NCBI GenBank assembly: GCA_943737045.1
Contig: CALSFV010000213.1
Span: 309,001-373,000 of the forward strand
DNA: 64,000 bases
Direction: 5' to 3'
Origin: Parapristionchus giblindavisi
Taxonomy: Eukaryota; Nematoda; Chromadorea; Rhabditida; Diplogasteridae
The translations under genes were made by a program, and so were the position numbers. The notes beneath the pieces were generated by a model. That model saw only the letters and a list, made by a program, of their open reading frames with translations. It searched no databases and was not told the DNA's origin. Below, in pieces: positions 2,719-51,372 of this stretch (the stretch's first letter is position 1; every line of letters starts with the position of its first letter).

Positions 2719-2751
2719 AGTATCGTTTCTTCCTTCACTCTTGTTGCTTCC

Positions 2752-16345: not shown

Positions 16346-16347
16346 AG

Positions 16348-16605
16348 TGAAAGATAAGCGCATAATGAAAAGTAAACAGGCCGTTGTTGTAGTTGATGAA
16401 GACGAAGTTCATGGTGAGAGGACGACTGGTCAATGAGTGAAAACACCGATGAAATGATAAATGAATGCTCCTCATATGTAAATCGCTTTGTTGTCGCGTC
16501 GATGAATGAATGGGAACAATTTGCATATGAACTTACTAATTGATTCGATCGGAACGGAATATGTTCAATTGGCGCGAGAGCAAGGATGATAGAGTGTGTA
16601 GACAT
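16348..16605 (-). pseudogene. Hypothetical 113-aa ORF, truncated at the palindrome border
   Basis: This holds the first 86 codons of the frame at 1528-1869 and 51019-51360. The 3' part is replaced by satellite, so translation would run into repeat sequence to a stop at 16267. It marks the outer breakpoint of the inverted repeat. Confidence 0.5.
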
Positions 16606-16776
16606 GAGAGAGTGCAGGTTGTAAAGTCAGATAGTGCGCAGAGACGAGAGAGTGGCGTTTGATCTACCTATATGTATAGTCTGATATTGATTGTAGTTCT
16701 ATGTAGCAATTTCTCGAGAATATTTCTTTTAAAATTGATCTTTGCTCTTTCAATTAAAGTTTTTTTGAAATGAATT

Positions 16777-17181
16777 TTAGTCTAAGATATATAAGCAAAT
16801 TTCGGCGTTGGTTTTGTTATATCTCAAGCTAATTATAGGATGTTTATTGAGTAGCCTGAATAGGCTACTTTTAATTAATGTTTCGGGATATTGTATTTTC
16901 TTATTATATGCTATTAGAGATTTCACTCGTTCTACAAAACTATCAAACCGAGTAGAATTTCTATAAATTCGAAGTACTTCACCGGTAAATGTGTTAACAC
17001 CAATATATGTTGGAATACTGGAGAGATAGTGAGGATATCTGATCACAACAAAATTATAATCGTCCGTTTTGTTATAAAGCTCTGTAATGGCTGTACCATC
17101 ATGTAGTTTAATATTAATATCCATGAATATTAATATGCTTGGTATAATACGCCTTATTGATCTAGACACATAGAGTGGCAA
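16777..17181 (-). pseudogene. RT thumb-like fragment, inverted copy
   Basis: The 134-codon frame is identical in protein to 50443-50847. It has the FMDINIK, YNKTDDYNF, HYLSSIP and RIYRNS landmarks described for 877-1356, with RIYRNS here where the left copy has RIYINS. The Arg here fits the usual R.RR/R-rich pattern after RI better than the Ile of the left copy. One T fewer at the upstream T-run puts it in a different frame from the preceding ORF. No catalytic palm motif is seen. Confidence 0.35.
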
Positions 17182-17378
17182 AAACGAGAGGGGTGTTCCA
17201 GTTGGGCAAAAACAGCTAAAACTTTGGCGCAGTGTGGATGACTGATGTGACCCATGACTCCAGCTCTGTTGTAGGTTTCTTCAGGATCAGAGGCGATGAC
17301 TCTGTTGATCTCGATATTCAGGTTGCCTTCGAAGGTAAAATATTCTCGTCGCTGAACATCGTGCTGAAGTGCGCGGAC

Positions 17379-17825
17379 CTATCGCAATGAAGAAACAGTT
17401 GAGGGTGCCGTTCTCAGCTTGATCTGTCGCTCATTCGGTTCGTACAGTTTACGGTACACGTAAGGGAGAAGAGTCAGCTGAAACTTGAGGAGACGACGAA
17501 CGGGTGTGTTCGAGATATCGAGTCTCCTGATGCTCGCGGTTTCGAAACACTTTCTTTCGGATGCTCTTTCGGTTGGTAGCGGTGGAAACAGAGATTGGTC
17601 TACCTCTTCCCGGATGTTCCTCGTCAGTACCAAGATCTTGGTACCTGATACCGGTATCGCATGTAACCGACTCGTGAACCCCGAGCCGATGAAAGATGCC
17701 ACTCTGTTCCTGTACATGCTAAAGTGAGAGTGTGACTCAATGGCTTCTTCATTGCGCACACTATTTCTCTGTTCTCTAACAACGAGGGAGCACAGACCGA
17801 TGAAGAGGCCATTGAGCGAGGTCAC
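17379..17825 (-). pseudogene. Unrecognised ORF, 148 codons, inverted copy
   Basis: The protein is identical to that of 49799-50245 and differs at a few residues from the truncated left copy at 373-753. No domain is recognised. In the same frame after the TAG, about 72 further codons are open before a stop. An opposite-strand frame at 17485-17727 is also open, so coding is uncertain. Confidence 0.3.
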
Positions 17826-17945
17826 TCTCCCTTTAAAATGAGGGGATTGACTTCATCATTACTAGAAGACGTGATTAACTGACTTGAAATCTTGAATATG
17901 GAGTGGCCAATGATCACTCGTCATGATCCTACAATTGGGGTTTTT

Positions 17946-18167
17946 TCACGTCGATACATAAGCTTTCGCCGCTGCCATATTGACCGAAGTACGAAAGTAG
18001 CTTTCACTCTGATAAGATCAAAACAGCTTATCAGATACAAAACATACAACGATGCCTATCGCGTGATATACTCGGTGACAGACAAAACATTCTGAATAAT
18101 ATATGTATTTTCCCATGCTGAAAGTCGCCAAACTGGCCGAACTAGAAAATTATCTTTTATTACTTTG
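17946..18167 (-). repeat. Satellite edge with long monomer, inverted
   Basis: This is the module border stretch TCACGTCGATACATAAGCTT (17946 onward) followed by the long-monomer insertion in reverse orientation. The 8-bp inverted repeat CTGATAAG/CTTATCAG is at 18009-18034. Confidence 0.8.
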
Positions 18168-21100
18168 TACATTTTGGTTCAAAACAATTCATGACAAGAG
18201 AGCTTTTCAGCAACACCCATATTGTTATATAACATTTGAAAAAGCAAACAATTCTGAATAAGGCACATCTCAGTTCACCTCGACCCATAAGCTTTCACAC
18301 CGCTACATAGACCGAAGTGTACATTTTGGCTCAAAATAATTCATGACAAGATAGATTTTCAGCAACACCCATGGTGTTATATGTCATTTGAAAGAGCAAA
18401 AAAATAAGAATAAGATAGATCTCAGTTAACCTCGACCCATTAGCTTTCACACCTGCTACATAGACCGAAGTGTACATTTTGGCTCAAAATAATTCATGAC
18501 AAGATAGATTTTCAGAACCACCCATGGTGTTATATATCATTTGAAAGAGCAAAAAATTCTGAATAAGATAGATCTCAGTTCACCTCGACCCATTAGCTTT
18601 CACACCTGCTACATAGACCGAAGTGTACATTTTGGCTCAAAATAATTCATGACAAGATAGATTTTCAGCAACACCCATGGTGTTATATATCATTTGAAAG
18701 AGGACAAAATTCTGAATAAGACAGATCTCAGTTCACCTCGACCTATTAGCTTTCACACCTGCTACATAGACCGAAGTGTACATTTTGGCTCAAAATAATT
18801 CATGACAAGATAGATTTTCTGCAACACCCATGGTGTTATATGTCATTTGAAAGAGCAAAAAATTCTGAATAAGATAGATCTCAGTTCTCCTCGACCCATT
18901 AGCTTTCACACCTGCTACATAGACCGAAGTGTACATTTTGGCTCAAAATAATTCATGACAAGATAGATTTTCAGCAACACCCATGATGTTATATGTCATT
19001 TGAAAGAGCAACAAATTCTGAATAAGATAGATCTCAGTTCACCTCGACCCATAAGCTTTCACACCTGCTACACAGAACGAAGTGTACATTTTGGCTCAAA
19101 ATAATTCATGACAAGATAGATTTTCAGCAACACCCATGGTGTTATATATCATTTGAAAGAGGACAAAATTCTGAATAAGACAGATCTCAGTTCACCTCGA
19201 CCTATTAGCTTTCACACCTGCTACATAGACCGAAGTGTACATTTTGGCTCAAAATAATTCATGACAAGATAGATTTTCTGCAACACCCATGGTGTTATAT
19301 GTCATTTGAAAGAGCAAAAAATTCTGAATAAGATAGATCTCAGTTCTCCTCGACCCATAAGCTTTCACACCTGCTACATAGACCGAAGTGTACGTTTTCG
19401 CTCAAAATAATTCATGACAAGATAGATTTTCAGCAACACCCATGGTGTTATATGTCATTTGAAAGAGCAAAAAAATAAGAATAAGATAGATCTCAGTTAA
19501 CCTCGACCCATTAGCTTTCACACCTGCTACATAGACCGAAGTGTACATTTTGGCTCAAAATAATTCATGACAAGATAGATTTTCAGAACCACCCATGGTG
19601 TTATATATCATTTGAAAGAGCAAAAAATTCTGAATAAGATAGATCTCAGTTCACCTCGACCCATTAGCTTTCACACCTGCTACATAGACCGAAGTGTACA
19701 TTTTGGCTCAAAATAATTCATGACAAGATAGATTTTCAGCAACACCCATGGTGTTATATATCATTTGAAAGAGGACAAAATTCTGAATAAGACAGATCTC
19801 AGTTCACCTCGACCTATTAGCTTTCACACCTGCTACATAGACCGAAGTGTACATTTTGGCTCAAAATAATTCATGACAAGATAGATTTTCTGCAACACCC
19901 ATGGTGTTATATGTCATTTGAAAGAGCAAAAAATTCTGAATAAGATAGATCTCAGTTCTCCTCGACCCATTAGCTTTCACACCTGCTACATAGACCGAAG
20001 TGTACATTTTGGCTCAAAATAATTCATGACAAGATAGATTTTCAGCAACACCCATGGTGTTATATATCATTTGAAAGAGCAAAAAATTCTGAATAAGATA
20101 GATCTCAGTTCACCTCGACCCATTAGCTTTCACACCTGCTACATAGACCGAAGTGTACATTTTGGCTCAAAATAATTCATGACAAGATAGATTTTCAGCA
20201 ACACCCATGGTGTTATATATCATTTGAAAGAGGACAAAATTCTGAATAAGACAGATCTCAGTTCACCTCGACCTATTAGCTTTCACACCTGCTACATAGA
20301 CCGAAGTGTACATTTTGGCTCAAAATAATTCATGACAAGATAGATTTTCTGCAACACCCATGGTGTTATATGTCATTTGAAAGAGCAAAAAATTCTGAAT
20401 AAGATAGATCTCAGTTCTCCTCGACCCATTAGCTTTCACACCTGCTACATAGACCGAAGTGTACATTTTGGCTCAAAATAATTCATGACAAGATAGATTT
20501 TCAGCAACACCCATGATGTTATATGTCATTTGAAAGAGCAACAAATTCTGAATAAGATAGATCTCAGTTCACCACGACCCATATGCTTTCACACCTGCTA
20601 CACAGAACGAAGTGTACATTTTGGCTCAAAATAATTCATGACAAGATAGATTTTCAGCAACACCCATGGTGTTATATATCATTTGAAAGAGGACAAAATT
20701 CTGAATAAGACAGATCTCAGTTCACCTCGACCTATTAGCTTTCACACCTGCTACATAGACCGAAGTGTACATTTTGGCTCAAAATAATTCATGACAAGAT
20801 AGATTTTCTGCAACACCCATGGTGTTATATGTCATTTGAAAGAGCAAAAAATTCTGAATAAGATAGATCTCAGTTCTCCTCGACCCATAAGCTTTCACAC
20901 CTGCTACATAGACCGAAGTGTACGTTTTCGCTCAAAATAATTCATGACAAGATAGATTTTCAGCAACACCCATGGTGTTATATGTCATTTGAAAGAGCAA
21001 AAAATTCTGAATAAGATAGATCTCAGTTCTCCTCGACCCATAAGCTTTCACACCTGCTACATAGACCGAAGTGTACGTTTTCGCTCAAAATAATTCATGA

Positions 21101-24100
21101 CAAGATAGATTTTCAGAACCACCCATGGTGTTATATATCATTTGAAAGAGCAAAAAAATCTGAATAAGATAGATCTCAGTTCACCTCGACCCATTAGCTT
21201 TCACACCTGCTACATAGACCGAAGTGTACATTTTGGCTCAAAATAATTCATGACAAGATAGATTTTCAGCAACACCCATGGTGTTATATATCATTTGAAA
21301 GAGGACAAAATTCTGAATAAGACAGATCTCAGTTCACCTCGACCTATTAGCTTTCACACCTGCTACATAGACCGAAGTGTACATTTTGGCTCAAAATAAT
21401 TCATGACAAGATAGATTTTCAGCAACACCCATGGTGTTATATATCATTTGAAAGAGGACAAAATTCTGAATAAGACAGATCTCAGTTCACCTCGACCTAT
21501 TAGCTTTCACACCTGCTACATAGACCGAAGTGTACATTTTGGCTCAAAATAATTCATGACAAGATAGATTTTCTGCAACACCCATGGTGTTATATGTCAT
21601 TTGAAAGAGCAAAAAATTCTGAATAAGATAGATCTCAGTTCTCCTCGACCCATTAGCTTTCACACCTGCTACATAGACCGAAGTGTACATTTTGGCTCAA
21701 AATAATTCATGACAAGATAGATTTTCAGCAACACCCATGATGTTATATGTCATTTGAAAGAGCAACAAATTCTGAATAAGATAGATCTCAGTTCACCTCG
21801 ACCCATAAGCTTTCACACCTGCTACACAGAACGAAGTGTACATTTTGGCTCAAAATAATTCATGACAAGATAGATTTTCAGCAACACCCATGGTGTTATA
21901 TATCATTTGAAAGAGGACAAAATTCTGAATAAGACAGATCTCAGTTCACCTCGACCTATTAGCTTTCACACCTGCTACATAGACCGAAGTGTACATTTTG
22001 GCTCAAAATAATTCATGACAAGATAGATTTTCTGCAACACCCATGGTGTTATATGTCATTTGAAAGAGCAAAAAATTCTGAATAAGATAGATCTCAGTTC
22101 TCCTCGACCCATAAGCTTTCACACCTGCTACATAGACCGAAGTGTACGTTTTCGCTCAAAATAATTCATGACAAGATAGATTTTCAGCAACACCCATGGT
22201 GTTATATGTCATTTGAAAGAGCAAAAAATTCTGAATAAGATAGATCTCAGTTCTCCTCGACCCATAAGCTTTCACACCTGCTACATAGACCGAAGTGTAC
22301 GTTTTCGCTCAAAATAATTCATGACAAGATAGATTTTCAGAACCACCCATGGTGTTATATATCATTTGAAAGAGCAAAAAAATCTGAATAAGATAGATCT
22401 CAGTTCACCTCGACCCATTAGCTTTCACACCTGCTACATAGACCGAAGTGTACATTTTGGCTCAAAATAATTCATGACAAGATGGATTTTCAGCAACACC
22501 CATGGTGTTGTTATATATCATTTGAATGAGGACAAAATTCTGAATAAGATAGATCTCTGTTCACCTCGACCCATTAGCTTTCACACCTGCTACATAGACC
22601 GAAGTGCACATTTTGGCTCAAAATAATTCATGACAAGATATATTTTCAGCAACACCCATGGTGTTATATCTCATTCGAAAGAGCAACAAATTCTGAATAA
22701 GATAGATCTCAGTTCACCTCGACCTATTAGCTTTCACACCTGCTACATAGACCGAAGTGTACATTTTGGCTCAAAATAATTCATGACAAGATAGATTTTC
22801 TGCAACACCCATGGTGTTATATGTCATTTGAAAGAGCAAAAAATTCTGAATAAGATAGATCTCAGTTCTCCTCGACCCATAAGCTTTCACACCTGCTACA
22901 TAGACCGAAGTGTACGTTTTCGCTCAAAATAATTCATGACAAGATAGATTTTCAGCAACACCCATGGTGTTATATGTCATTTGAAAGAGCAAAAAATTCT
23001 GAATAAGATAGATCTCAGTTCTCCTCGACCCATAAGCTTTCACACCTGCTACATAGACCGAAGTGTACGTTTTCGCTCAAAATAATTCATGACAAGATAG
23101 ATTTTCAGAACCACCCATGGTGTTATATATCATTTGAAAGAGCAAAAAAATCTGAATAAGATAGATCTCAGTTCACCTCGACCCATAAGCTTTCACACCT
23201 GCTACATAGACCGAAGTGTACGTTTTCGCTCAAAATAATTCATGACAAGATAGATTTTCAGAACCACCCATGGTGTTATATATCATTTGAAAGAGCAAAA
23301 AAATCTGAATAAGATAGATCTCAGTTCACCTCGACCCATTAGCTTTCACACCTGCTACATAGACCGAAGTGTACATTTTGGCTCAAAATAATTCATGACA
23401 AGATGGATTTTCAGCAACACCCATGGTGTTGTTATATATCATTTGAATGAGGACAAAATTCTGAATAAGATAGATCTCTGTTCACCTCGACCCATTAGCT
23501 TTCACACCTGCTACATAGACCGAAGTGCACATTTTGGCTCAAAATAATTCATGACAAGATATATTTTCAGCAACACCCATGGTGTTATATCTCATTCGAA
23601 AGATCAACAAATTCTGAATAAGATAGATCTCAGTTCACCTCGACCTATTAGCTTTCACACCTGCTACATAGACCGAAGTGTACATTTTGGCTCAAATAAT
23701 TCATGACAAGATAGATTTTCAGCAACACCCATGGTGTTATATGTCATTTGAAAGAGCAACAAATTCTGAATAAGATAGATCTCAGTTCACCTCGACCCAT
23801 AAGTTTTCACACCTGCTACACAGAACGAAGTGTACATTTTGGCTCAAAATAATTCATGACAAGATAGATTTTCAGCAACACCCATGGTGTTATATGTCAT
23901 TTGAAAGAGCAACAAATTCTGAATAAGATAGATCTCAGTTCACCTCGACCCATAAGCTTTCACACCTGCTACACAGAACGAAGTGTACATTTTGGCTCAA
24001 AATAATTCATGACAAGATAGATTTTCAGCAACACCCATGGTGTTATATGTCATTTGAAAGAGGACAAAATTCTGAATAAGACAGATCTCAGTTCACCTCG

Positions 24101-27100
24101 ACCTATTAGGTTTCACACCTGCTACATAGACCGAAGTGTACATTTTGGCTCAAAATAATTCATGACAAGATAGATTTTCAGCAACACCCATGGTGTTATA
24201 TGTCATTTGAAAGAGCAAAAAATTCTGAATAAGATAGATCTCAGTTCACCTCGACCCATAAGCTTTCACACCTGCTACATAGACCGAAGTGTACGTTTTC
24301 GCTCAAAATAATTCATGACAAGATAGATTTTCAGAACCACCCATGGTGTTATATATCATTTGAAAGAGCAAAAAATCTGAATAAGATAGATCTCAGTTCA
24401 CCTCGACCCATAAGCTTTCACACCTGCTACACAGAACGAAGTGTACATTTTGGCTCAAAATAATTCATGACAAGATAGATTTTCAGCAACACCCATGGTG
24501 TTATATGTCATTTGAAAGAGGACAAAATTCTGAATAAGACAGATCTCAGTTCACCTCGACCTATTAGGTTTCACACCTGCTACATAGACCGAAGTGTACA
24601 TTTTGGCTCAAAATAATTCATGACAAGATAGATTTTCAGCAACACCCATGGTGTTATATGTCATTTGAAAGAGCAAAAAATTCTGAATAAGATAGATCTC
24701 AGTTCACCTCGACCCATAAGCTTTCACACCTGCTACATAGACCGAAGTGTACGTTTTCGCTCAAAATAATTCATGACAAGATAGATTTTCAGAACCACCC
24801 ATGGTGTTATATATCATTTGAAAGAGCAAAAAATCTGAATAAGATAGATCTCAGTTCACCTCGACCCATAAGCTTTCACACCTGCTACACAGAACGAAGT
24901 GTACATTTTGGCTCAAAATAATTCATGACAAGATAGATTTTCAGCAACACCCATGGTGTTATATATCATTTGAAAGAGGACAAAATTCTGAATAAGATAG
25001 ATCTCAGTTCACCTCGACCCATTAGCTTTCACACCTGCTACATAGACCGAAGTGTACTTTTTGGCTCAAAATAATTCATGACAAGATAGATTTTCAGCAA
25101 CACCCATGGTGTTATATGTCATTTGAAAGAGCAACAAATTCTGAATAAGATAGATCTCAGTTCACCTCGACCCATAAGCTTTCACACCTGCTACACAGAA
25201 CGAAGTGTACATTTTGGCTCAAAATAATTCATGACAAGATAGATTTTCAGCAACACCCATGGTGTTATATGTCATTTGAAAGAGGACAAAATTCTGAATA
25301 AGACAGATCTCAGTTCACCTCGACCTATTAGGTTTCACACCTGCTACATAGACCGAAGTGTACATTTTGGCTCAAAATAATTCATGACAAGATAGATTTT
25401 CAGCAACACCCATGGTGTTATATGTCATTTGAAAGAGCAAAAAATTCTGAATAAGATAGATCTCAGTTCACCTCGACCCATAAGCTTTCACACCTGCTAC
25501 ATAGACCGAAGTGTACGTTTTCGCTCAAAATAATTCATGACAAGATAGATTGTCAGCAACACCCATGGTGTTATATGTCATTTGAAAGAGCAAAAAAATC
25601 TGAATAAGATAGATCTCAGTTCACCTCGACCCATTAGCTTTCACACCTACTACATAGACCGAAGTGTACATTTTGGCTCAAAATAATTCATGACAAGATA
25701 GATTTTCAGCAACACCCATGGTGCTATATATCATTTGAAAGAGCAAAAAATTCTGAATAAGATAGATCTCAGTTCACCTCAACCCATTAGCTTTCACACC
25801 TGCTACATAGACCGAAGTGTACATTTTGGCTCAAAATAATTCATGACAAGATAGATTTTCAGCAACACCCATGGTGTTATATATCATTTGAAAGAGGACA
25901 AAATTCTGAATAAGATAGATCTCAGTTCACCTCGACCCATTAGCTTTCACACCTGCTACATAGACCGAAGTGTACATTTTGGCTCAAAATAATTCATGAC
26001 AAGATAGATTTTCAGCAACACCCATGGTGTTATATATCATTTGAAAGAGCAAAAAAAATCTGAATAAGATAGATCTCAGTTCTCCTCGACCCATAAGCTT
26101 TCACACCTGCTACACAGAACGAAGTGTACATTTTGGCTCAAAATAATTCATGACAAGATAGATTTTCAGCAACACCCATGGTGTTATATGTCATTTGAAA
26201 GAGCAAAAAAATAAGAATAAGATAGATCTCAGTTAACCTCGACCCATTAGCTTTCACACCTGCTACATAGACCGAAGTGTACATTTTGGCTCAAAATAAT
26301 TCATGACAAGATAGATTTTCAGAACCACCCATGGTGTTATATATCATTTGAAAGAGCAAAAAATTCTGAATAAGATAGATCTCAGTTCACCTCGACCCAT
26401 TAGCTTTCACACCTGCTACATAGACCGAAGTGTACATTTTGGCTCAAAATAATTCATGACAAGATAGATTTTCAGCAACACCCATGGTGTTATATATCAT
26501 TTGAAAGAGGACAAAATTCTGAATAAGACAGATCTCAGTTCACCTCGACCTATTAGCTTTCACACCTGCTACATAGACCGAAGTGTACATTTTGGCTCAA
26601 AATAATTCATGACAAGATAGATTTTCTGCAACACCCATGGTGTTATATGTCATTTGAAAGAGCAAAAAATTCTGAATAAGATTGATCTCAGTTCTCCTCG
26701 ACCCATTAGCTTTCACACCTGCTACATAGACCGAAGTGTACATTTTGGCTCAAAACAATTCATGACAAGATAGATTTTCAGCAACACCCATGATGTTATA
26801 TGTCATTTGAAAGAGCAACAAATTCTGAATAAGATAGATCTCAGTTCACCTCGACCCATAAGCTTTCACACCTGCTACACAGAACGAAGTGTACATTTTG
26901 GCTCAAAATAATTCATGACAAGATAGATTTTCAGCAACACCCATGGTGTTATATATCATTTGAAAGAGGACAAAATTCTGAATAAGACAGATCTCAGTTC
27001 ACCTCGACCTATTAGCTTTCACACCTGCTACATAGACCGAAGTGTACATTTTGGCTCAAAATAATTCATGACAAGATAGATTTTCTGCAACACCCATGGT

Positions 27101-30100: not shown

Positions 30101-31839
30101 GAAGTGTACTTTTTGGCTCAAAATAATTCATGACAAGATAGATTTTCAGCAACACCCATGGTGTTATATGTCATTTGAAAGAGCAACAAATTCTGAATAA
30201 GATAGATCTCAGTTCACCTCGACCCATAAGCTTTCACACCTGCTACACAGAACGAAGTGTACATTTTGGCTCAAAATAATTCATGACAAGATAGATTTTC
30301 AGCAACACCCATGGTGTTATATGTCATTTGAAAGAGGACAAAATTCTGAATAAGACAGATCTCAGTTCACCTCGACCTATTAGGTTTCACACCTGCTACA
30401 TAGACCGAAGTGTACATTTTGGCTCAAAATAATTCATGACAAGATAGATTTTCAGCAACACCCATGGTGTTATATGTCATTTGAAAGAGCAAAAAATTCT
30501 GAATAAGATAGATCTCAGTTCACCTCGACCCATAAGCTTTCACACCTGCTACATAGACCGAAGTGTACGTTTTCGCTCAAAATAATTCATGACAAGATAG
30601 ATTGTCAGCAACACCCATGGTGTTATATGTCATTTGAAAGAGCAAAAAAATCTGAATAAGATAGATCTCAGTTCACCTCGACCCATTAGCTTTCACACCT
30701 ACTACATAGACCGAAGTGTACATTTTGGCTCAAAATAATTCATGACAAGATAGATTTTCAGCAACACCCATGGTGCTATATATCATTTGAAAGAGCAAAA
30801 AATTCTGAATAAGATAGATCTCAGTTCACCTCAACCCATTAGCTTTCACACCTGCTACATAGACCGAAGTGTACATTTTGGCTCAAAATAATTCATGACA
30901 AGATAGATTTTCAGCAACACCCATGGTGTTATATATCATTTGAAAGAGGACAAAATTCTGAATAAGATAGATCTCAGTTCACCTCGACCCATTAGCTTTC
31001 ACACCTGCTACATAGACCGAAGTGTACATTTTGGCTCAAAATAATTCATGACAAGATAGATTTTCAGCAACACCCATGGTGTTATATATCATTTGAAAGA
31101 GCAAAAAAAATCTGAATAAGATAGATCTCAGTTCACCTCGACCCATTAGCTTTCACACCTGCTACATAGACCGAAGTGTACATTTTGGCTCAAAATAATT
31201 CATGACAAGATAGATTTTCAGCAACACCCATGGTGTTATATGTCATTTGAAAGAGCAACAAATTCTGAATAAGATAGCTCAAAATAATTCATGACAAGAT
31301 AGATTTTCAGCAACACCCTCTGAATAAGATAGATCTCAGTTCACCTCGACCCATAAGCTTTCACACCTGCTACACAGAACGAAGTGTACATTTTGGCTCA
31401 AAATAATTCATGACAAGATAGATTTTCAGCAACACCCATGGTGTTATATATCATTTGAAAGAGGACAAAATTCTGAATAAGATAGATCTCAGTTCACCTC
31501 GACCCATTAGCTTTCACACCTGCTACATAGACCGAAGTGTACTTTTTGGCTCAAAATAATTCATGACAAGATAGATTTTCAGCAACACCCATGGTGTTAT
31601 ATGTCATTTGAAAGAGCAACAAATTCTGAATAAGATAGATCTCAGTTCACCTCGACCCATAAGCTTTCACACCTGCTACACAGAACGAAGTGTACATTTT
31701 GGCTCAAAATAATTCATGACAAGATAGATTTTCAGCAACACCCATGGTGTTATATGTCATTTGAAAGAGGACAAAATTCTGAATAAGACAGATCTCAGTT
31801 CACCTCGACCTATTAGGTTTCACACCTGCTACATAGACC

Positions 31840-39200: not shown

Positions 39201-42200
39201 ACACTTCGGTCTATGTAGCAGGTGTGAAAGCTTATGGGTCGAGGTGAACTGAGATCTATCTTATTCAGATTTTTTTGCTCTTTCAAATGATATATAACAC
39301 CATGGGTGGTTCTGAAAATCTATCTTGTCATGAATTATTTTGAGCGAAAACGTACACTTCGGTCTATGTAGCAGGTGTGAAAGCTTATGGGTCGAGGAGA
39401 ACTGAGATCTATCTTATTCAGAATTTTTTGCTCTTTCAAATGACATATAACACCATGGGTGTTGCTGAAAATCTATCTTGTCATGAATTATTTTGAGCGA
39501 AAACGTACACTTCGGTCTATGTAGCAGGTGTGAAAGCTTATGGGTCGAGGAGAACTGAGATCTATCTTATTCAGAATTTTTTGCTCTTTCAAATGACATA
39601 TAACACCATGGGTGTTGCAGAAAATCTATCTTGTCATGAATTATTTTGAGCCAAAATGTACACTTCGGTCTATGTAGCAGGTGTGAAAGCTAATAGGTCG
39701 AGGTGAACTGAGATCTGTCTTATTCAGAATTTTGTCCTCTTTCAAATGATATATAACACCATGGGTGTTGCTGAAAATCTATCTTGTCATGAATTATTTT
39801 GAGCCAAAATGTACACTTCGTTCTGTGTAGCAGGTGTGAAAGCTTATGGGTCGAGGTGAACTGAGATCTATCTTATTCAGAATTTGTTGCTCTTTCAAAT
39901 GACATATAACATCATGGGTGTTGCTGAAAATCTATCTTGTCATGAATTATTTTGAGCCAAAATGTACACTTCGGTCTATGTAGCAGGTGTGAAAGCTAAT
40001 GGGTCGAGGAGAACTGAGATCAATCTTATTCAGAATTTTTTGCTCTTTCAAATGACATATAACACCATGGGTGTTGCAGAAAATCTATCTTGTCATGAAT
40101 TATTTTGAGCCAAAATGTACACTTCGGTCTATGTAGCAGGTGTGAAAGCTAATAGGTCGAGGTGAACTGAGATCTGTCTTATTCAGAATTTTGTCCTCTT
40201 TCAAATGATATATAACACCATGGGTGTTGCTGAAAATCTATCTTGTCATGAATTATTTTGAGCCAAAATGTACACTTCGGTCTATGTAGCAGGTGTGAAA
40301 GCTAATGGGTCGAGGTGAACTGAGATCTATCTTATTCAGAATTTTTTGCTCTTTCAAATGATATATAACACCATGGGTGGTTCTGAAAATCTATCTTGTC
40401 ATGAATTATTTTGAGCCAAAATGTACACTTCGGTCTATGTAGCAGGTGTGAAAGCTAATGGGTCGAGGTTAACTGAGATCTATCTTATTCTTATTTTTTT
40501 GCTCTTTCAAATGACATATAACACCATGGGTGTTGCTGAAAATCTATCTTGTCATGAATTATTTTGAGCCAAAATGTACACTTCGTTCTGTGTAGCAGGT
40601 GTGAAAGCTTATGGGTCGAGGAGAACTGAGATCTATCTTATTCAGATTTTTTTTGCTCTTTCAAATGATATATAACACCATGGGTGTTGCTGAAAATCTA
40701 TCTTGTCATGAATTATTTTGAGCCAAAATGTACACTTCGGTCTATGTAGCAGGTGTGAAAGCTAATGGGTCGAGGTGAACTGAGATCTATCTTATTCAGA
40801 ATTTTGTCCTCTTTCAAATGATATATAACACCATGGGTGTTGCTGAAAATCTATCTTGTCATGAATTATTTTGAGCCAAAATGTACACTTCGGTCTATGT
40901 AGCAGGTGTGAAAGCTAATGGGTTGAGGTGAACTGAGATCTATCTTATTCAGAATTTTTTGCTCTTTCAAATGATATATAGCACCATGGGTGTTGCTGAA
41001 AATCTATCTTGTCATGAATTATTTTGAGCCAAAATGTACACTTCGGTCTATGTAGTAGGTGTGAAAGCTAATGGGTCGAGGTGAACTGAGATCTATCTTA
41101 TTCAGAATTTTTTGCTCTTTCAAATGACATATAACACCATGGGTGTTGCAGAAAATCTATCTTGTCATGAATTATTTTGAGCCAAAATGTACACTTCGGT
41201 CTATGTAGCAGGTGTGAAAGCTAATAGGTCGAGGTGAACTGAGATCTGTCTTATTCAGAATTTTGTCCTCTTTCAAATGATATATAACACCATGGGTGTT
41301 GCTGAAAATCTATCTTGTCATGAATTATTTTGAGCCAAAATGTACACTTCGTTCTGTGTAGCAGGTGTGAAAGCTTATGGGTCGAGGTGAACTGAGATCT
41401 ATCTTATTCAGAATTTGTTGCTCTTTCAAATGACATATAACATCATGGGTGTTGCTGAAAATCTATCTTGTCATGAATTATTTTGAGCCAAAATGTACAC
41501 TTCGGTCTATGTAGCAGGTGTGAAAGCTAATGGGTCGAGGAGAACTGAGATCAATCTTATTCAGAATTTTTTGCTCTTTCAAATGACATATAACACCATG
41601 GGTGTTGCAGAAAATCTATCTTGTCATGAATTATTTTGAGCCAAAATGTACACTTCGGTCTATGTAGCAGGTGTGAAAGCTAATAGGTCGAGGTGAACTG
41701 AGATCTGTCTTATTCAGAATTTTGTCCTCTTTCAAATGATATATAACACCATGGGTGTTGCTGAAAATCTATCTTGTCATGAATTATTTTGAGCCAAAAT
41801 GTACACTTCGGTCTATGTAGCAGGTGTGAAAGCTAATGGGTCGAGGTGAACTGAGATCTATCTTATTCAGAATTTTTTGCTCTTTCAAATGATATATAAC
41901 ACCATGGGTGGTTCTGAAAATCTATCTTGTCATGAATTATTTTGAGCCAAAATGTACACTTCGGTCTATGTAGCAGGTGTGAAAGCTAATGGGTCGAGGT
42001 TAACTGAGATCTATCTTATTCTTATTTTTTTGCTCTTTCAAATGACATATAACACCATGGGTGTTGCTGAAAATCTATCTTGTCATGAATTATTTTGAGC
42101 CAAAATGTACACTTCGTTCTGTGTAGCAGGTGTGAAAGCTTATGGGTCGAGGAGAACTGAGATCTATCTTATTCAGATTTTTTTTGCTCTTTCAAATGAT

Positions 42201-45200
42201 ATATAACACCATGGGTGTTGCTGAAAATCTATCTTGTCATGAATTATTTTGAGCCAAAATGTACACTTCGGTCTATGTAGCAGGTGTGAAAGCTAATGGG
42301 TCGAGGTGAACTGAGATCTATCTTATTCAGAATTTTGTCCTCTTTCAAATGATATATAACACCATGGGTGTTGCTGAAAATCTATCTTGTCATGAATTAT
42401 TTTGAGCCAAAATGTACACTTCGGTCTATGTAGCAGGTGTGAAAGCTAATGGGTTGAGGTGAACTGAGATCTATCTTATTCAGAATTTTTTGCTCTTTCA
42501 AATGATATATAGCACCATGGGTGTTGCTGAAAATCTATCTTGTCATGAATTATTTTGAGCCAAAATGTACACTTCGGTCTATGTAGTAGGTGTGAAAGCT
42601 AATGGGTCGAGGTGAACTGAGATCTATCTTATTCAGATTTTTTTGCTCTTTCAAATGACATATAACACCATGGGTGTTGCTGACAATCTATCTTGTCATG
42701 AATTATTTTGAGCGAAAACGTACACTTCGGTCTATGTAGCAGGTGTGAAAGCTTATGGGTCGAGGTGAACTGAGATCTATCTTATTCAGAATTTTTTGCT
42801 CTTTCAAATGACATATAACACCATGGGTGTTGCTGAAAATCTATCTTGTCATGAATTATTTTGAGCCAAAATGTACACTTCGGTCTATGTAGCAGGTGTG
42901 AAACCTAATAGGTCGAGGTGAACTGAGATCTGTCTTATTCAGAATTTTGTCCTCTTTCAAATGACATATAACACCATGGGTGTTGCTGAAAATCTATCTT
43001 GTCATGAATTATTTTGAGCCAAAATGTACACTTCGTTCTGTGTAGCAGGTGTGAAAGCTTATGGGTCGAGGTGAACTGAGATCTATCTTATTCAGAATTT
43101 GTTGCTCTTTCAAATGACATATAACACCATGGGTGTTGCTGAAAATCTATCTTGTCATGAATTATTTTGAGCCAAAAAGTACACTTCGGTCTATGTAGCA
43201 GGTGTGAAAGCTAATGGGTCGAGGTGAACTGAGATCTATCTTATTCAGAATTTTGTCCTCTTTCAAATGATATATAACACCATGGGTGTTGCTGAAAATC
43301 TATCTTGTCATGAATTATTTTGAGCCAAAATGTACACTTCGTTCTGTGTAGCAGGTGTGAAAGCTTATGGGTCGAGGTGAACTGAGATCTATCTTATTCA
43401 GATTTTTTGCTCTTTCAAATGATATATAACACCATGGGTGGTTCTGAAAATCTATCTTGTCATGAATTATTTTGAGCGAAAACGTACACTTCGGTCTATG
43501 TAGCAGGTGTGAAAGCTTATGGGTCGAGGTGAACTGAGATCTATCTTATTCAGAATTTTTTGCTCTTTCAAATGACATATAACACCATGGGTGTTGCTGA
43601 AAATCTATCTTGTCATGAATTATTTTGAGCCAAAATGTACACTTCGGTCTATGTAGCAGGTGTGAAACCTAATAGGTCGAGGTGAACTGAGATCTGTCTT
43701 ATTCAGAATTTTGTCCTCTTTCAAATGACATATAACACCATGGGTGTTGCTGAAAATCTATCTTGTCATGAATTATTTTGAGCCAAAATGTACACTTCGG
43801 TCTATGTAGCAGGTGTGAAAGCTAATGGGTCGAGGTGAACAGAGATCTATCTTATTCAGAATTTTGTCCTCATTCAAATGATATATAACAACACCATGGG
43901 TGTTGCTGAAAATCCATCTTGTCATGAATTATTTTGAGCCAAAATGTACACTTCGGTCTATGTAGCAGGTGTGAAAGCTAATGGGTCGAGGTGAACTGAG
44001 ATCTATCTTATTCAGATTTTTTTGCTCTTTCAAATGATATATAACACCATGGGTGGTTCTGAAAATCTATCTTGTCATGAATTATTTTGAGCGAAAACGT
44101 ACACTTCGGTCTATGTAGCAGGTGTGAAAGCTTATGGGTCGAGGTGAACTGAGATCTATCTTATTCAGATTTTTTTGCTCTTTCAAATGATATATAACAC
44201 CATGGGTGGTTCTGAAAATCTATCTTGTCATGAATTATTTTGTGCCAAAATGTACACTTCGGTCTATGTAGCAGGTGTGAAAGCTTATGGGTCGAGGAGA
44301 ACTGAGATCTATCTTATTCAGAATTTTTTGCTCTTTCAAATGACATATAACACCATGGGTGTTGCTGAAAATCTATCTTGTCATGAATTATTTTGAGCGA
44401 AAACGTACACTTCGGTCTATGTAGCAGGTGTGAAAGCTTATGGGTCGAGGAGAACTGAGATCTATCTTATTCAGAATTTTTTGCTCTTTCAAATGACATA
44501 TAACACCATGGGTGTTGCAGAAAATCTATCTTGTCATGAATTATTTTGAGCCAAAATGTACACTTCGGTCTATGTAGCAGGTGTGAAAGCTAATAGGTCG
44601 AGGTGAACTGAGATCTGTCTTATTCAGAATTTTGTCCTCTTTCAAATGATATATAACACCATGGGTGTTGCTGAAAATCTATCTTGTCATGAATTATTTT
44701 GAGCCAAAATGTACACTTCGTTCTGTGTAGCAGGTGTGAAAGCTTATGGGTCGAGGTGAACTGAGATCTATCTTATTCAGAATTTGTTGCTCTTTCAAAT
44801 GACATATAACATCATGGGTGTTGCTGAAAATCTATCTTGTCATGAATTATTTTGAGCCAAAATGTACACTTCGGTCTATGTAGCAGGTGTGAAAGCTAAT
44901 GGGTCGAGGAGAACTGAGATCTATCTTATTCAGAATTTTTTGCTCTTTCAAATGACATATAACACCATGGGTGTTGCAGAAAATCTATCTTGTCATGAAT
45001 TATTTTGAGCCAAAATGTACACTTCGGTCTATGTAGCAGGTGTGAAAGCTAATAGGTCGAGGTGAACTGAGATCTGTCTTATTCAGAATTTTGTCCTCTT
45101 TCAAATGATATATAACACCATGGGTGTTGCTGAAAATCTATCTTGTCATGAATTATTTTGAGCCAAAATGTACACTTCGGTCTATGTAGCAGGTGTGAAA

Positions 45201-48200
45201 GCTAATAGGTCGAGGTGAACTGAGATCTGTCTTATTCAGAATTTTGTCCTCTTTCAAATGATATATAACACCATGGGTGTTGCTGAAAATCTATCTTGTC
45301 ATGAATTATTTTGAGCCAAAATGTACACTTCGGTCTATGTAGCAGGTGTGAAAGCTAATGGGTCGAGGTGAACTGAGATCTATCTTATTCAGATTTTTTT
45401 GCTCTTTCAAATGATATATAACACCATGGGTGGTTCTGAAAATCTATCTTGTCATGAATTATTTTGAGCGAAAACGTACACTTCGGTCTATGTAGCAGGT
45501 GTGAAAGCTTATGGGTCGAGGAGAACTGAGATCTATCTTATTCAGAATTTTTTGCTCTTTCAAATGACATATAACACCATGGGTGTTGCTGAAAATCTAT
45601 CTTGTCATGAATTATTTTGAGCGAAAACGTACACTTCGGTCTATGTAGCAGGTGTGAAAGCTTATGGGTCGAGGAGAACTGAGATCTATCTTATTCAGAA
45701 TTTTTTGCTCTTTCAAATGACATATAACACCATGGGTGTTGCAGAAAATCTATCTTGTCATGAATTATTTTGAGCCAAAATGTACACTTCGGTCTATGTA
45801 GCAGGTGTGAAAGCTAATAGGTCGAGGTGAACTGAGATCTGTCTTATTCAGAATTTTGTCCTCTTTCAAATGATATATAACACCATGGGTGTTGCTGAAA
45901 ATCTATCTTGTCATGAATTATTTTGAGCCAAAATGTACACTTCGTTCTGTGTAGCAGGTGTGAAAGCTTATGGGTCGAGGTGAACTGAGATCTATCTTAT
46001 TCAGAATTTGTTGCTCTTTCAAATGACATATAACATCATGGGTGTTGCTGAAAATCTATCTTGTCATGAATTATTTTGAGCCAAAATGTACACTTCGGTC
46101 TATGTAGCAGGTGTGAAAGCTAATGGGTCGAGGAGAACTGAGATCTATCTTATTCAGAATTTTTTGCTCTTTCAAATGACATATAACACCATGGGTGTTG
46201 CAGAAAATCTATCTTGTCATGAATTATTTTGAGCCAAAATGTACACTTCGGTCTATGTAGCAGGTGTGAAAGCTAATAGGTCGAGGTGAACTGAGATCTG
46301 TCTTATTCAGAATTTTGTCCTCTTTCAAATGATATATAACACCATGGGTGTTGCTGAAAATCTATCTTGTCATGAATTATTTTGAGCCAAAATGTACACT
46401 TCGGTCTATGTAGCAGGTGTGAAAGCTAATGGGTCGAGGTGAACTGAGATCTATCTTATTCAGAATTTTTTGCTCTTTCAAATGATATATAACACCATGG
46501 GTGGTTCTGAAAATCTATCTTGTCATGAATTATTTTGAGCCAAAATGTACACTTCGGTCTATGTAGCAGGTGTGAAAGCTAATGGGTCGAGGTTAACTGA
46601 GATCTATCTTATTCTTATTTTTTTGCTCTTTCAAATGACATATAACACCATGGGTGTTGCTGAAAATCTATCTTGTCATGAATTATTTTGAGCCAAAATG
46701 TACACTTCGTTCTGTGTAGCAGGTGTGAAAGCTTATGGGTCGAGGAGAACTGAGATCTATCTTATTCAGAATTTTTTGCTCTTTCAAATGACATATAACA
46801 CCATGGGTGTTGCTGAAAATCTATCTTGTCATGAATTATTTTGAGCGAAAACGTACACTTCGGTCTATGTAGCAGGTGTGAAAGCTTATGGGTCGAGGAG
46901 AACTGAGATCTATCTTATTCAGAATTTTTTGCTCTTTCAAATGACATATAACACCATGGGTGTTGCAGAAAATCTATCTTGTCATGAATTATTTTGAGCC
47001 AAAATGTACACTTCGGTCTATGTAGCAGGTGTGAAAGCTAATAGGTCGAGGTGAACTGAGATCTGTCTTATTCAGAATTTTGTCCTCTTTCAAATGATAT
47101 ATAACACCATGGGTGTTGCTGAAAATCTATCTTGTCATGAATTATTTTGAGCCAAAATGTACACTTCGTTCTGTGTAGCAGGTGTGAAAGCTTATGGGTC
47201 GAGGTGAACTGAGATCTATCTTATTCAGAATTTGTTGCTCTTTCAAATGACATATAACATCATGGGTGTTGCTGAAAATCTATCTTGTCATGAATTATTT
47301 TGAGCCAAAATGTACACTTCGGTCTATGTAGCAGGTGTGAAAGCTAATGGGTCGAGGTGAACTGAGATCTATCTTATTCAGAATTTTTTGCTCTTTCAAA
47401 TGATATATAACACCATGGGTGGTTCTGAAAATCTATCTTGTCATGAATTATTTTGAGCCAAAATGTACACTTCGGTCTATGTAGCAGGTGTGAAAGCTAA
47501 TGGGTCGAGGTTAACTGAGATCTATCTTATTCTTATTTTTTTGCTCTTTCAAATGACATATAACACCATGGGTGTTGCTGAAAATCTATCTTGTCATGAA
47601 TTATTTTGAGCCAAAATGTACACTTCGTTCTGTGTAGCAGGTGTGAAAGCTTATGGGTCGAGGAGAACTGAGATCTATCTTATTCAGAATTTTTTGCTCT
47701 TTCAAATGACATATAACACCATGGGTGTTGCTGAAAATCTATCTTGTCATGAATTATTTTGAGCGAAAACGTACACTTCGGTCTATGTAGCAGGTGTGAA
47801 AGCTTATGGGTCGAGGAGAACTGAGATCTATCTTATTCAGAATTTTTTGCTCTTTCAAATGACATATAACACCATGGGTGTTGCAGAAAATCTATCTTGT
47901 CATGAATTATTTTGAGCCAAAATGTACACTTCGGTCTATGTAGCAGGTGTGAAAGCTAATAGGTCGAGGTGAACTGAGATCTGTCTTATTCAGAATTTTG
48001 TCCTCTTTCAAATGATATATAACACCATGGGTGTTGCTGAAAATCTATCTTGTCATGAATTATTTTGAGCCAAAATGTACACTTCGTTCTGTGTAGCAGG
48101 TGTGAAAGCTTATGGGTCGAGGTGAACTGAGATCTATCTTATTCAGAATTTGTTGCTCTTTCAAATGACATATAACATCATGGGTGTTGCTGAAAATCTA

Positions 48201-49656
48201 TCTTGTCATGAATTATTTTGAGCCAAAATGTACACTTCGGTCTATGTAGCAGGTGTGAAAGCTTATGGGTCGAGGAGAACTGAGATCTATCTTATTCAGA
48301 ATTTTTTGCTCTTTCAAATGACATATAACACCATGGGTGTTGCAGAAAATCTATCTTGTCATGAATTATTTTGAGCCAAAATGTACACTTCGGTCTATGT
48401 AGCAGGTGTGAAAGCTAATAGGTCGAGGTGAACTGAGATCTGTCTTATTCAGAATTTTGTCCTCTTTCAAATGATATATAACACCATGGGTGTTGCTGAA
48501 AATCTATCTTGTCATGAATTATTTTGAGCCAAAATGTACACTTCGTTCTGTGTAGCAGGTGTGAAAGCTTATGGGTCGAGGTGAACTGAGATCTATCTTA
48601 TTCAGAATTTGTTGCTCTTTCAAATGACATATAACATCATGGGTGTTGCTGAAAATCTATCTTGTCATGAATTATTTTGAGCCAAAATGTACACTTCGGT
48701 CTATGTAGCAGGTGTGAAAGCTAATGGGTCGAGGAGAACTGAGATCTATCTTATTCAGAATTTTTTGCTCTTTCAAATGACATATAACACCATGGGTGTT
48801 GCAGAAAATCTATCTTGTCATGAATTATTTTGAGCCAAAATGTACACTTCGGTCTATGTAGCAGGTGTGAAAGCTAATAGGTCGAGGTGAACTGAGATCT
48901 GTCTTATTCAGAATTTTGTCCTCTTTCAAATGATATATAACACCATGGGTGTTGCTGAAAATCTATCTTGTCATGAATTATTTTGAGCCAAAATGTACAC
49001 TTCGGTCTATGTAGCAGGTGTGAAAGCTAATGGGTCGAGGTGAACTGAGATCTATCTTATTCAGAATTTTTTGCTCTTTCAAATGATATATAACACCATG
49101 GGTGGTTCTGAAAATCTATCTTGTCATGAATTATTTTGAGCCAAAATGTACACTTCGGTCTATGTAGCAGGTGTGAAAGCTAATGGGTCGAGGTTAACTG
49201 AGATCTATCTTATTCTTATTTTTTTGCTCTTTCAAATGACATATAACACCATGGGTGTTGCTGAAAATCTATCTTGTCATGAATTATTTTGAGCCAAAAT
49301 GTACACTTCGGTCTATGTAGCAGGTGTGAAAGCTAATAGGTCGAGGTGAACTGAGATCTGTCTTATTCAGAATTTTGTCCTCTTTCAAATGATATATAAC
49401 ACCATGGGTGTTGCTGAAAAGCTCTCTTGTCATGAATTGTTTTGAACCAAAATGTACAAAGTAATAAAAGATAATTTTCTAGTTCGGCCAGTTTGGCGAC
49501 TTTCAGCATGGGAAAATACATATATTATTCAGAATGTTTTGTCTGTCACCGAGTATATCACGCGATAGGCATCGTTGTATGTTTTGTATCTGATAAGCTG
49601 TTTTGATCTTATCAGAGTGAAAGCTACTTTCGTACTTCGGTCAATATGGCAGCGGC

Positions 49657-49678
49657 GAAAGCTTATGTATCGACGTGA
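49657..49678 (+). repeat. 22-bp satellite stretch repeated on both sides of module M
   Basis: GAAAGCTTATGTATCGACGT plus GA sits directly before module M. A copy differing by two bases (TATGGATCG, GTAA) sits directly after it at 60392-60413 and 6506-6527. It could be a target duplication or a recombination footprint in the satellite. Confidence 0.6.
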
Positions 49679-49798
49679 AAAAACCCCAATTGTAGGATCA
49701 TGACGAGTGATCATTGGCCACTCCATATTCAAGATTTCAAGTCAGTTAATCACGTCTTCTAGTAATGATGAAGTCAATCCCCTCATTTTAAAGGGAGA

Positions 49799-50245
49799 GT
49801 GACCTCGCTCAATGGCCTCTTCATCGGTCTGTGCTCCCTCGTTGTTAGAGAACAGAGAAATAGTGTGCGCAATGAAGAAGCCATTGAGTCACACTCTCAC
49901 TTTAGCATGTACAGGAACAGAGTGGCATCTTTCATCGGCTCGGGGTTCACGAGTCGGTTACATGCGATACCGGTATCAGGTACCAAGATCTTGGTACTGA
50001 CGAGGAACATCCGGGAAGAGGTAGACCAATCTCTGTTTCCACCGCTACCAACCGAAAGAGCATCCGAAAGAAAGTGTTTCGAAACCGCGAGCATCAGGAG
50101 ACTCGATATCTCGAACACACCCGTTCGTCGTCTCCTCAAGTTTCAGCTGACTCTTCTCCCTTACGTGTACCGTAAACTGTACGAACCGAATGAGCGACAG
50201 ATCAAGCTGAGAACGGCACCCTCAACTGTTTCTTCATTGCGATAG
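49799..50245 (+). pseudogene. Unrecognised ORF, 148 codons
   Basis: ATG-to-TAG frame identical in protein to 17379-17825. It begins in the duplicated text 'CAATGGCCTCTTCATCGGT' and 'CAATGAAGAAGCCATTGAGT', which resemble each other. Arg-rich, no recognised domain. The frame continues open for about 72 codons after the TAG (to about 50470). Codon choice looks less AT-rich than the surroundings (many CGA, GAG, ACC), which suggests a once-coding stretch of other origin. Overlapping frames at 49812-50000 and 49897-50139 (minus) are probably shadows. Confidence 0.3.
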
Positions 50246-50442
50246 GTCCGCGCACTTCAGCACGATGTTCAGCGACGAGAATATTTTACCTTCGAAGGCA
50301 ACCTGAATATCGAGATCAACAGAGTCATCGCCTCTGATCCTGAAGAAACCTACAACAGAGCTGGAGTCATGGGTCACATCAGTCATCCACACTGCGCCAA
50401 AGTTTTAGCTGTTTTTGCCCAACTGGAACACCCCTCTCGTTT

Positions 50443-50847
50443 TTGCCACTCTATGTGTCTAGATCAATAAGGCGTATTATACCAAGCATATTAATATTCA
50501 TGGATATTAATATTAAACTACATGATGGTACAGCCATTACAGAGCTTTATAACAAAACGGACGATTATAATTTTGTTGTGATCAGATATCCTCACTATCT
50601 CTCCAGTATTCCAACATATATTGGTGTTAACACATTTACCGGTGAAGTACTTCGAATTTATAGAAATTCTACTCGGTTTGATAGTTTTGTAGAACGAGTG
50701 AAATCTCTAATAGCATATAATAAGAAAATACAATATCCCGAAACATTAATTAAAAGTAGCCTATTCAGGCTACTCAATAAACATCCTATAATTAGCTTGA
50801 GATATAACAAAACCAACGCCGAAATTTGCTTATATATCTTAGACTAA
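50443..50847 (+). pseudogene. RT thumb-like fragment, right copy
   Basis: 134 codons with FMDINIK (about residues 19-25), TELYNKTDDYNF (33-44), HYLSSIP, VLRIYRNS, FVERVKSLI and YPETLIKSS. The pattern is like the post-palm region of Penelope-like reverse transcriptases. The upstream palm is absent or too decayed to see. A T5 run (T6 in the left copy) separates it from the open frame that precedes it. It ends TTAGACTAA. Codon use turns strongly AT-rich here, unlike the preceding ORF, so the two parts may have different origins. Confidence 0.35.
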
Positions 50848-51018
50848 AATTCATTTCAAAAAAACTTTAATTGAAAGAGCAAAGATCAATTTTAAAAGAA
50901 ATATTCTCGAGAAATTGCTACATAGAACTACAATCAATATCAGACTATACATATAGGTAGATCAAACGCCACTCTCTCGTCTCTGCGCACTATCTGACTT
51001 TACAACCTGCACTCTCTC

Positions 51019-51360
51019 ATGTCTACACACTCTATCATCCTTGCTCTCGCGCCAATTGAACATATTCCGTTCCGATCGAATCAATTAGTAAGTTCATATG
51101 CAAATTGTTCCCATTCATTCATCGACGCGACAACAAAGCGATTTACATATGAGGAGCATTCATTTATCATTTCATCGGTGTTTTCACTCATTGACCAGTC
51201 GTCCTCTCACCATGAACTTCGTCTTCATCAACTACAACAACGGCCTGTTTACTTTTCATTATGCGCTTATCTTTCACTGATTGCGACACTATTGGGCTTA
51301 TTCAGTGGGCAATTCTTAGATCGTTTCATGTCATGTCTTTTCCAAAGTAGCGCGAACTAG
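51019..51360 (+). CDS. Hypothetical small protein, 113 aa, right copy
   Basis: Same predicted protein as 1528-1869, with one possible C-terminal membrane segment. The palindrome border falls inside it (51278). A shorter frame in another register at 51098-51280 is probably a shadow. Coding is doubtful. Confidence 0.2.
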   Translation: MSTHSIILALAPIEHIPFRSNQLVSSYANCSHSFIDATTKRFTYEEHSFIISSVFSLIDQSSSHHELRLHQLQQRPVYFSLCAYLSLIATLLGLFSGQFLDRFMSCLFQSSAN

Positions 51361-51372
51361 TATTACATTAGT

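What the first reader, a model, noticed from the sequence alone, without database searches (positions are those of the whole stretch)
16346..51278. Near-perfect inverted repeat with arms of 17-18 kb made of satellite and a module fragment
The two arms carry the same elements in mirror order and share base changes against the third module copy, so the inversion-duplication is recent or homogenised. The arms differ by whole satellite monomers (about three on each side of the LTR-like element) and by higher-order arrangement: marker spacing is 4285 bp in one arm and 4900 bp in the other. A folded long read would not give this. Long palindromes are known on sex chromosomes, in amplified regions and after fold-back repair.
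Basis: partly seen in the sequence, partly recalled or inferred. Interest (0 to 1): 0.75.

Follow-up and report, generated by a model that had tools for sequence, protein, structure and literature searches.

The report
Inverted duplication inside nematode satellite array
In a worm chromosome, a 17-18 kb piece of repetitive DNA lies copied backwards next to itself, apparently from repair of a break in the repeat array; such mirror copies are known elsewhere, and this one keeps enough detail to suggest how it arose.

Summary
Window 16346-34274 is an inverted copy of 34275-51278: the module fragment (1,818 bp) and the 365-bp element match exactly, and 14,245 aligned bases differ at 20, while whole-monomer blocks differ (eight gap runs). 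The host is a rhabditine nematode. Outside the window, an uninterrupted sister array shows that the array left of the palindrome and the right arm are consecutive pieces of one former array, about 0.25 kb apart, or 2.7 kb at a competing position. Without the inverted segment the order is the regular A-T-B-S. Best reading: a break or stalled fork in the S array, filled with about 18 kb copied backwards from the neighbouring array and module, with 2-3-nt microhomologies and a 5-nt filler. The locus changes strand seven times in 166 kb, two of these being this palindrome's own junctions. An assembly or amplification artefact is not excluded without reads. New member of a known kind.

The parts
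8092..16347 (+). S satellite array (153-bp monomer, ~460-bp higher-order period), called S_1: left remnant of the interrupted array
16346..16347 (.). Left junction: S array joined to inverted module A with 2-bp microhomology (AG), at the loop of a predicted ATTTTG-AGC-CAAAAT hairpin; one match in the genome
16346..34274 (-). Left arm: inverted copy
16348..18165 (-). Module A fragment, 1,818 bp, identical to 49459-51276
18166..34263 (-). S satellite array, left arm (101 units by the split used)
31840..32204 (-). 365-bp element with 75-bp terminal direct repeats and a tRNA-like gene (Ser-GGA call at 32054-32125 +); 7-bp target duplication GGTCTAT
34264..34284 (.). Centre: 21-nt unpaired stretch with 5-nt filler ACATA; left exit at an AACACC-CAT-GGTGTT hairpin; one match in the genome
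34275..51278 (+). Right arm: direct copy, continuous with module A at 51279
35884..36248 (+). Same 365-bp element, identical, same insertion site
36249..49458 (+). S satellite array, outer part of the right arm
49459..53131 (+). Module A, copy A2 (the arm match ends inside it at 51278)
53132..59015 (+). T satellite array (138-141 bp)
59016..61977 (+). Module B
362..3326 (+). Module A, copy A1

Best explanation
A regular macro-array (module A - T satellite - module B - S satellite, head to tail) was interrupted in one S array. The two sides of the break are now the end of the S array at 16347 and the start of the right arm at about 34270. The gap was filled by about 17.9 kb of new DNA copied in the reverse direction from the neighbouring stretch (S array plus about 1.8 kb of module A), probably from the sister chromatid or homologue. 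Synthesis started in module A with 2-bp microhomology, ran back through the array to beside the break, and was joined to the other side through a 3-nt microhomology and a 5-nt, apparently templated filler (microhomology-mediated break-induced replication, or fork template switching). Afterwards the arms exchanged or slipped whole monomer blocks while gaining almost no point changes. Shown: the anatomy, the matching flanks, the junction letters, one genome match per junction, further strand switches nearby. Inferred: the break, the template, the order of steps, the later block exchange, and any role of hairpins.
For: Removing 16346 to about 34269 restores the order A-T-B-S-A-T-B-S. On the uninterrupted sister array S_3, the last 1,200 bp of S_1 map best with their end at offset 25,169 (96.9%), and the first 612 bp of the right arm map equally well (99.67%) to 25,420 and 27,870. 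Monomers whose type has a single position in S_3 (of 244): S_1 0-140 (8 monomers), left arm 207-225 (26), right arm 207-225 (16), A4 side 207-225 (21). The arms share one transposon insertion with the same target duplication and nine monomer types absent from the other three arrays compared. Of 72 aligned unit pairs 65 are identical. Junction letters; one genome match each with up to two mismatches. Both S-side exits lie at predicted hairpins with 6-bp stems and 3-nt loops (placed by eye).
Against: No reads were seen; both junctions rest on one assembly. With 1,200 bp the right arm's best S_3 position is 27,870 (99.67%) and 25,420 comes second (99.00%), so the loss at the break may be about 2.7 kb; the last 612 bp of S_1 have nearly equal S_3 positions spread over about 4 kb. 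The A4-side array is also close to the left arm (37 substitutions in 10,183 bp), so low divergence is partly a property of the locus. The unit next to the module differs between the arms by 3 edits (43 versus 51). The hairpin placement is post hoc and covers two of three S-side breakpoints; a strand switch in S on C18 is not at a hairpin loop.
Confidence: 0.48

Rival explanations
1. Fold-back or sister-chromatid fusion: the right-hand broken end folded back on itself (or fused with its sister), giving a large palindromic chromosome; a second break inside the mirror copy of module A was then healed to the left-hand end S_1.
For: The inverted arm carries about five monomers (~0.77 kb) at the turn that the direct arm lacks, like the single-copy spacer of human fold-back inverted duplications (766-70,466 bp; passages of PMC3907307). 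Inverted microhomology of 2-8 bp was found at 13 of 21 junctions there. Chromosome fusions segregate in holocentric nematodes (passages of PMC9071541).
Against: It needs a second break and a join back to the very array neighbour that was lost. In a simple local fold-back the extra monomers should lie on the direct arm, not the inverted one (my reasoning, no call).
Confidence: 0.2
2. Artefact: palindromic chimeric reads (for example from whole-genome amplification of single worms) or a wrong path through near-identical satellite created the inverted segment.
For: Amplification makes many palindromic reads (11.8% and 45.8% of reads in two data sets, passages of PMC6218980; about one third of mitochondrial reads in tardigrades, passages of PMC13265396). 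The same contig holds other very similar palindromes (8.8-kb arms, 99.97%). Both junctions were found once in the assembly, and no second haplotype copy of module A showed among the 40 of 2,471 candidates scored. How this assembly was made is unknown to me.
Against: A single folded read gives arms equal except for errors, whereas these differ by monomer blocks. An overlap error would not be expected to make the join at 16346, where the two sides share 2 bp (inference). The left flank and right arm are consecutive parts of one array, which random chimeras would not give. One passage says palindromic nuclear reads of nematodes can be corrected (PMC13265396).
Confidence: 0.25
3. An old palindrome kept near-identical by arm-to-arm gene conversion, as in sex-chromosome palindromes.
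For: Almost no point differences beside many block differences could come from conversion plus unequal exchange.
Against: Module copies A3 and A4, outside the arms, are also nearly identical to A2 (4 substitutions each in about 3.3-3.5 kb), so no special conversion between the arms is needed. No gene content was seen.
Confidence: 0.07

Closest known systems
Macro-dyad symmetries of Tribolium madens satellites TmSat1/TmSat2 (PMC13081366; passages read)
   Different: There, a few inversion-site types recur thousands of times and are conserved (2,044 INV_1a and 3,486 INV_1b sequences). Here the two junctions of this palindrome were each found once, and the arms also contain module and transposon sequence. 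Nematode, not beetle.
Human fold-back inverted duplications (PMC3907307; abstract and passages read)
   Same: Inverted duplication with a short stretch present on one side only at the turn (~0.77 kb here; 766-70,466 bp there), short microhomology, inserted sequence at some junctions.
   Different: Those named in the passages are large, next to terminal deletions, translocations or in rings. This is an 18-kb insert within a tandem array.
ODIRA, template switching between leading and lagging strands in yeast (PMC10766183; abstract and section list only)
   Different: ODIRA gives inverted interstitial triplications; here one inverted and one direct copy are seen, and no origin was tested.
Sex-chromosome palindromes (PMC11168930, search listing with start of abstract only; features recalled)
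   Same: Long, highly similar inverted arms.
   Different: Those are gene-bearing and conversion-maintained (recalled); here satellite, no gene seen, and arms with many block differences.

Membership tests
Inverted duplication (palindrome) | Two long arms in opposite orientation with near-identical sequence | tested here: met
Inverted duplication (palindrome) | Arms descend from one copy rather than being independent arrays of the same satellite | tested here: met
   Same element insertion with same target duplication; nine private monomer types
Satellite macro-dyad (Tribolium type) | Array of one satellite that changes orientation, kb-scale subarrays | tested here: met
Satellite macro-dyad (Tribolium type) | Conserved inversion site repeated across arrays | tested here: not met
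   Centre and left junction each found once in 251 Mb with up to 2 mismatches. The other five switches of the locus were not searched genome-wide; junction letters read at 412, 425.9 and 452.98 kb and on C18 differ from this centre
Fold-back inverted duplication | Single-copy spacer at the turn | tested here: met
   Monomers 1-5 at the turn on the inverted side only
Fold-back inverted duplication | Inverted microhomology at the junction | tested here: met
   ATG plus 5-nt filler, read by eye
Fold-back inverted duplication | Copy number and inheritance of the rearrangement | not testable with these tools
   No reads or individuals
Amplification or assembly artefact | Arms equal except for read errors | tested here: not met
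   Eight gap runs of 1-12 units, one of them at the turn
Amplification or assembly artefact | No read with unique flanks across the centre | not testable with these tools
   No reads held
Sex-chromosome palindrome | Gene content and sex linkage | tested here: inconclusive
   Two ORFs of 150 aa or more in the window, neither over a Pfam cut-off; no wider gene search; linkage not testable

The most novel reading that the evidence does not exclude
Short hairpins built into the S monomers make the array a repeated site of inverted templated repair, so that macro-dyad satellite domains of a holocentric nematode arise one break at a time and are then reshaped by block exchange; the seven strand switches in 166 kb would be successive events of this kind.
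Probability: 0.2. Interest if true: 0.62.

Novelty: new member of a known kind. Interest (0 to 1): 0.4.

Why it matters
The origin of strand switches in satellite arrays is usually erased. Here the donor, the recipient array, an uninterrupted sister array, a transposon marker and both junctions are in one contig, so the event can be read at single-monomer resolution. If reads confirm it, the locus is a usable case for how macro-dyad satellite domains begin, and for comparing block exchange with point mutation (eight gap runs, beside 20 substitutions in 14,245 aligned bases).

Tried and rejected
Chance similarity: rejected (exact inverted matches of 1,875, 1,895, 2,319 and 2,499 bp). A simple 96% palindrome, as BLAST first suggested: rejected, because most mismatches come from wrong register; with register changes allowed, aligned bases differ at 0.14%. 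Two independent arrays of the same satellite: rejected (shared element insertion and private monomers). Shared base changes as proof of recency: rejected. A repeated conserved inversion site: not found for this palindrome's two junctions. Exact mirror symmetry at the turn: not present; on the axis 34274 the first 153 bp outwards match at 87% and then the match is lost, and the left arm carries monomers 1-5 beyond the start of the right arm. Rfam at gathering thresholds and ARAGORN found only the two tRNA-like genes. Pfam gave nothing over cut-off for the two longest ORFs. Paper searches: none holds '153 bp satellite' with 'nematode'; four hold nematode, palindrome, inverted duplication and genome, none on such a locus by title and abstract start; nothing on such a nematode locus was seen by title and abstract start in the listings. 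The species was not identified beyond rhabditine nematode: the best cox1 hits are 95% to a Litoditis cluster and 95% to a Rhabditida cluster (120 of 2,083 hits listed); a Litoditis search listing and passages of a Pelodera review gave no matching assembly.

Limits: the genome was searched only with selected sequences, and lists of repeats are lower bounds by the tool's own statement. The gap-run count depends on my alignment scores. In one search the S_3 control was only its last part (C213:393000-410329). The hairpin coincidence was judged by eye after the fact, with no probability computed.
Full report
What is there. The window (G000:C213:309001-373000; genome 251.4 Mb in 703 contigs; contig 1.76 Mb) is built of two satellites and two modules. 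S is a 153-bp satellite with a roughly 460-bp higher-order period. T is a 138-141-bp satellite. Modules A and B are mostly non-satellite. The order is S, A1, T, B, S (to 16347), inverted A fragment, inverted S (to 34263), turn, S, A2, T, B, S. The host is a rhabditine nematode: the 14.2-kb contig C644 carries cox1 read with the invertebrate mitochondrial code, 95% identical to clusters named Litoditis and Rhabditida. Genus and species are not resolved.

The arms. Arm 16346-34274 mirrors 34275-51278. The 1,818-bp module fragment and the 365-bp element are identical in both. Exact matches reach 1,875 bp at the outer end, 1,895 bp around the element, and 2,319 and 2,499 bp in the array. A register-aware chain aligns 14,245 bp with 20 substitutions (0.14%) and 10 register changes. 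With the same method the left arm gave 37 substitutions in 10,183 bp against the A4-side array, 353 in 13,954 against the end of S_3, and 56 in 4,682 against S_1. As strings of units, 65 of 72 aligned pairs are identical and there are eight gap runs of 1 to 12 units, one of them at the turn. Of 43 and 40 unit types in the left and right arm, 32 are shared; nine of these, including the element-bearing unit, occur in none of the other three arrays compared. The element sits at the same point of the same monomer, with the same 7-bp target duplication in both arms.

Over the fragment, module copy A1 differs at 13 of 1,428 aligned bases. Only three columns within the fragment vary among the fragment, A2, A3 and A4, and at all three the fragment and A2 carry A1's letter. 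So the 13 differences from A1 are common to the four other copies and say nothing about this palindrome. The fragment equals A2 (0 of 1,600), against 3 of 1,600 for A3 and 2 of 1,599 for A4.

The surroundings. I read 264 kb of the contig. The macro-array goes on to about 408.7 kb (C213 coordinates) with a long S array of 244 units (S_3). From 307 to 473 kb the sequence changes strand at about 325.35, 343.27, 412.0-412.3, 425.8-426.0, 445.9-446.6, 452.98 and 461.0-461.8 kb: seven switches in 166 kb, the first two being this palindrome's junctions. One of the others is a second inverted copy of the S-A boundary (A3 and A4; one BLAST register gives arms of 11.4 kb at 96.9%), and another turns inside T with about 9-kb arms. 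Outside the satellite domain lies a palindrome centred at 256.49 kb: arms of 8.8 kb, 99.97%, spacer 607 bp. Of the module B matches listed, four are 98-100% identical, all on this contig; the other matches longer than 300 bp are 87% or less (40 of 177 candidates scored).

The reconstruction. Units whose type has a single position in S_3 place S_1 (left of the palindrome) at 0-140 and both arms at 207-225 of 244. The last 1,200 bp of S_1 map best to S_3 offset 23,948-25,169; the last 612 bp have several nearly equal positions. The first 612 bp of the right arm map equally well to 25,420 and 27,870; the first 1,200 bp map best to 27,870 (99.67%) with 25,420 second (99.00%). The inner end of the inverted arm maps to 22,675 or 26,660. 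I read this as S_1 and the right arm having been neighbours, with the inverted arm put between them. The inverted arm runs about five units further at the turn than the direct arm.

The junctions. Left: S satellite ...TTATTTTGAG meets module TGAAAGATAAG..., with the two bases AG common to both parents. Centre...AACACCCATG, then ACATA, then AAATGACATATAACACC. ATGACATA recurs just downstream, so the filler looks templated. Each junction has one match in the genome with up to two mismatches. DNA folding of monomer pieces gives two hairpins with 6-bp stems and 3-nt loops, AACACC-ATG-GGTGTT and ATTTTG-AGC-CAAAAT, and the S-side exits at the centre and at the left junction lie at their loops. The first, exact 15-base hairpin string occurs 74 times in the right-arm array and 17 times in S_1, where a variant with an extra G occurs 26 times, so it is not in every monomer. 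This is suggestive only: the re-entry into S at the centre and a strand switch on C18 are not at loops, and the folding z-scores are modest (-2.16 and -0.88; 0.50 for the piece left of the turn).

Mechanism. I prefer a break or stalled fork in the S array repaired by copying about 18 kb backwards from the neighbouring array and module (microhomology-mediated break-induced replication or template switching; recalled, with human fold-back duplications and yeast ODIRA seen). By my reasoning a local fold-back of the right end should leave the extra units on the direct arm; they are on the inverted arm. The fold-back route then needs a full palindromic chromosome and a second break. Holocentric chromosomes could tolerate that, but it is the longer path. 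Later block exchange is inferred from tandemly duplicated blocks of 8 units in the left arm and 10 in the right.

Real or artefact. The block differences, the left junction and the fitting flanks speak for a real structure. The density of palindromes in this contig, the known abundance of palindromic reads after whole-genome amplification and the lack of any second copy of the junctions speak for caution. I put the artefact at about one in four.

What is known. Satellite arrays with kilobase inverted subarrays are described for Tribolium madens with conserved recurrent inversion sites (passages of PMC13081366). The present locus shares the macro-dyad form but its two junctions do not recur. 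It is a new member of a known kind. Age: 0 differences in 2,183 base pairs of module fragment and element means recent or homogenised; I give no date.

Noticed in passing
window 31840-32204 and 35884-36248; G000 C220:735716-740179: 365-bp element: 75-bp terminal direct repeats around a tRNA-like gene, 7-bp target duplication. On C220 it forms arrays at 290-bp spacing that change strand, and among the 79 listed matches several other contigs (such as C338, C204, C2, C61, C28) carry back-to-back inverted pieces that turn at or near the tRNA-like gene.
   Followed up: partly
C213:240376-265640 (outside the window): Two adjoining palindromes in non-satellite DNA: arms of about 3.3 kb centred near 243.85 kb, and arms of 8.8 kb (99.97%, 607-bp spacer) centred at 256.49 kb.
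   Followed up: partly
C213:412042-412319 (outside the window): A 278-bp stretch that ends with AATAAA and a run of A lies at the turn of the A3/A4 palindrome, like a retro-copied 3' end captured at a break (read by eye).
   Followed up: no
C213:450558-455202 (outside the window): T satellite turns round at about 452.977 kb with a few bases of filler; arms reach about 9 kb, and 728-bp turn regions flank it near 446.3 and 461.4 kb; the first of these carries a dispersed ~309-bp repeat.
   Followed up: partly
window about 51965-52525 (module A): A dispersed fold-back family: copies on many contigs appear as opposed pairs a few hundred bases apart. A second family of about 700-bp opposed arms, with spacers near 190 bp in several pairs, matches C213:249140-249838.
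   Followed up: no
window 877-1356, and about 50370-50847 in copy A2: Module A holds a frame (159 aa in copy A1) that looks by eye like the end of a reverse transcriptase (recalled, no Pfam support); a stretch of about 580 bp overlapping it recurs at 92% on C671, C117, C293 and C5.
   Followed up: no
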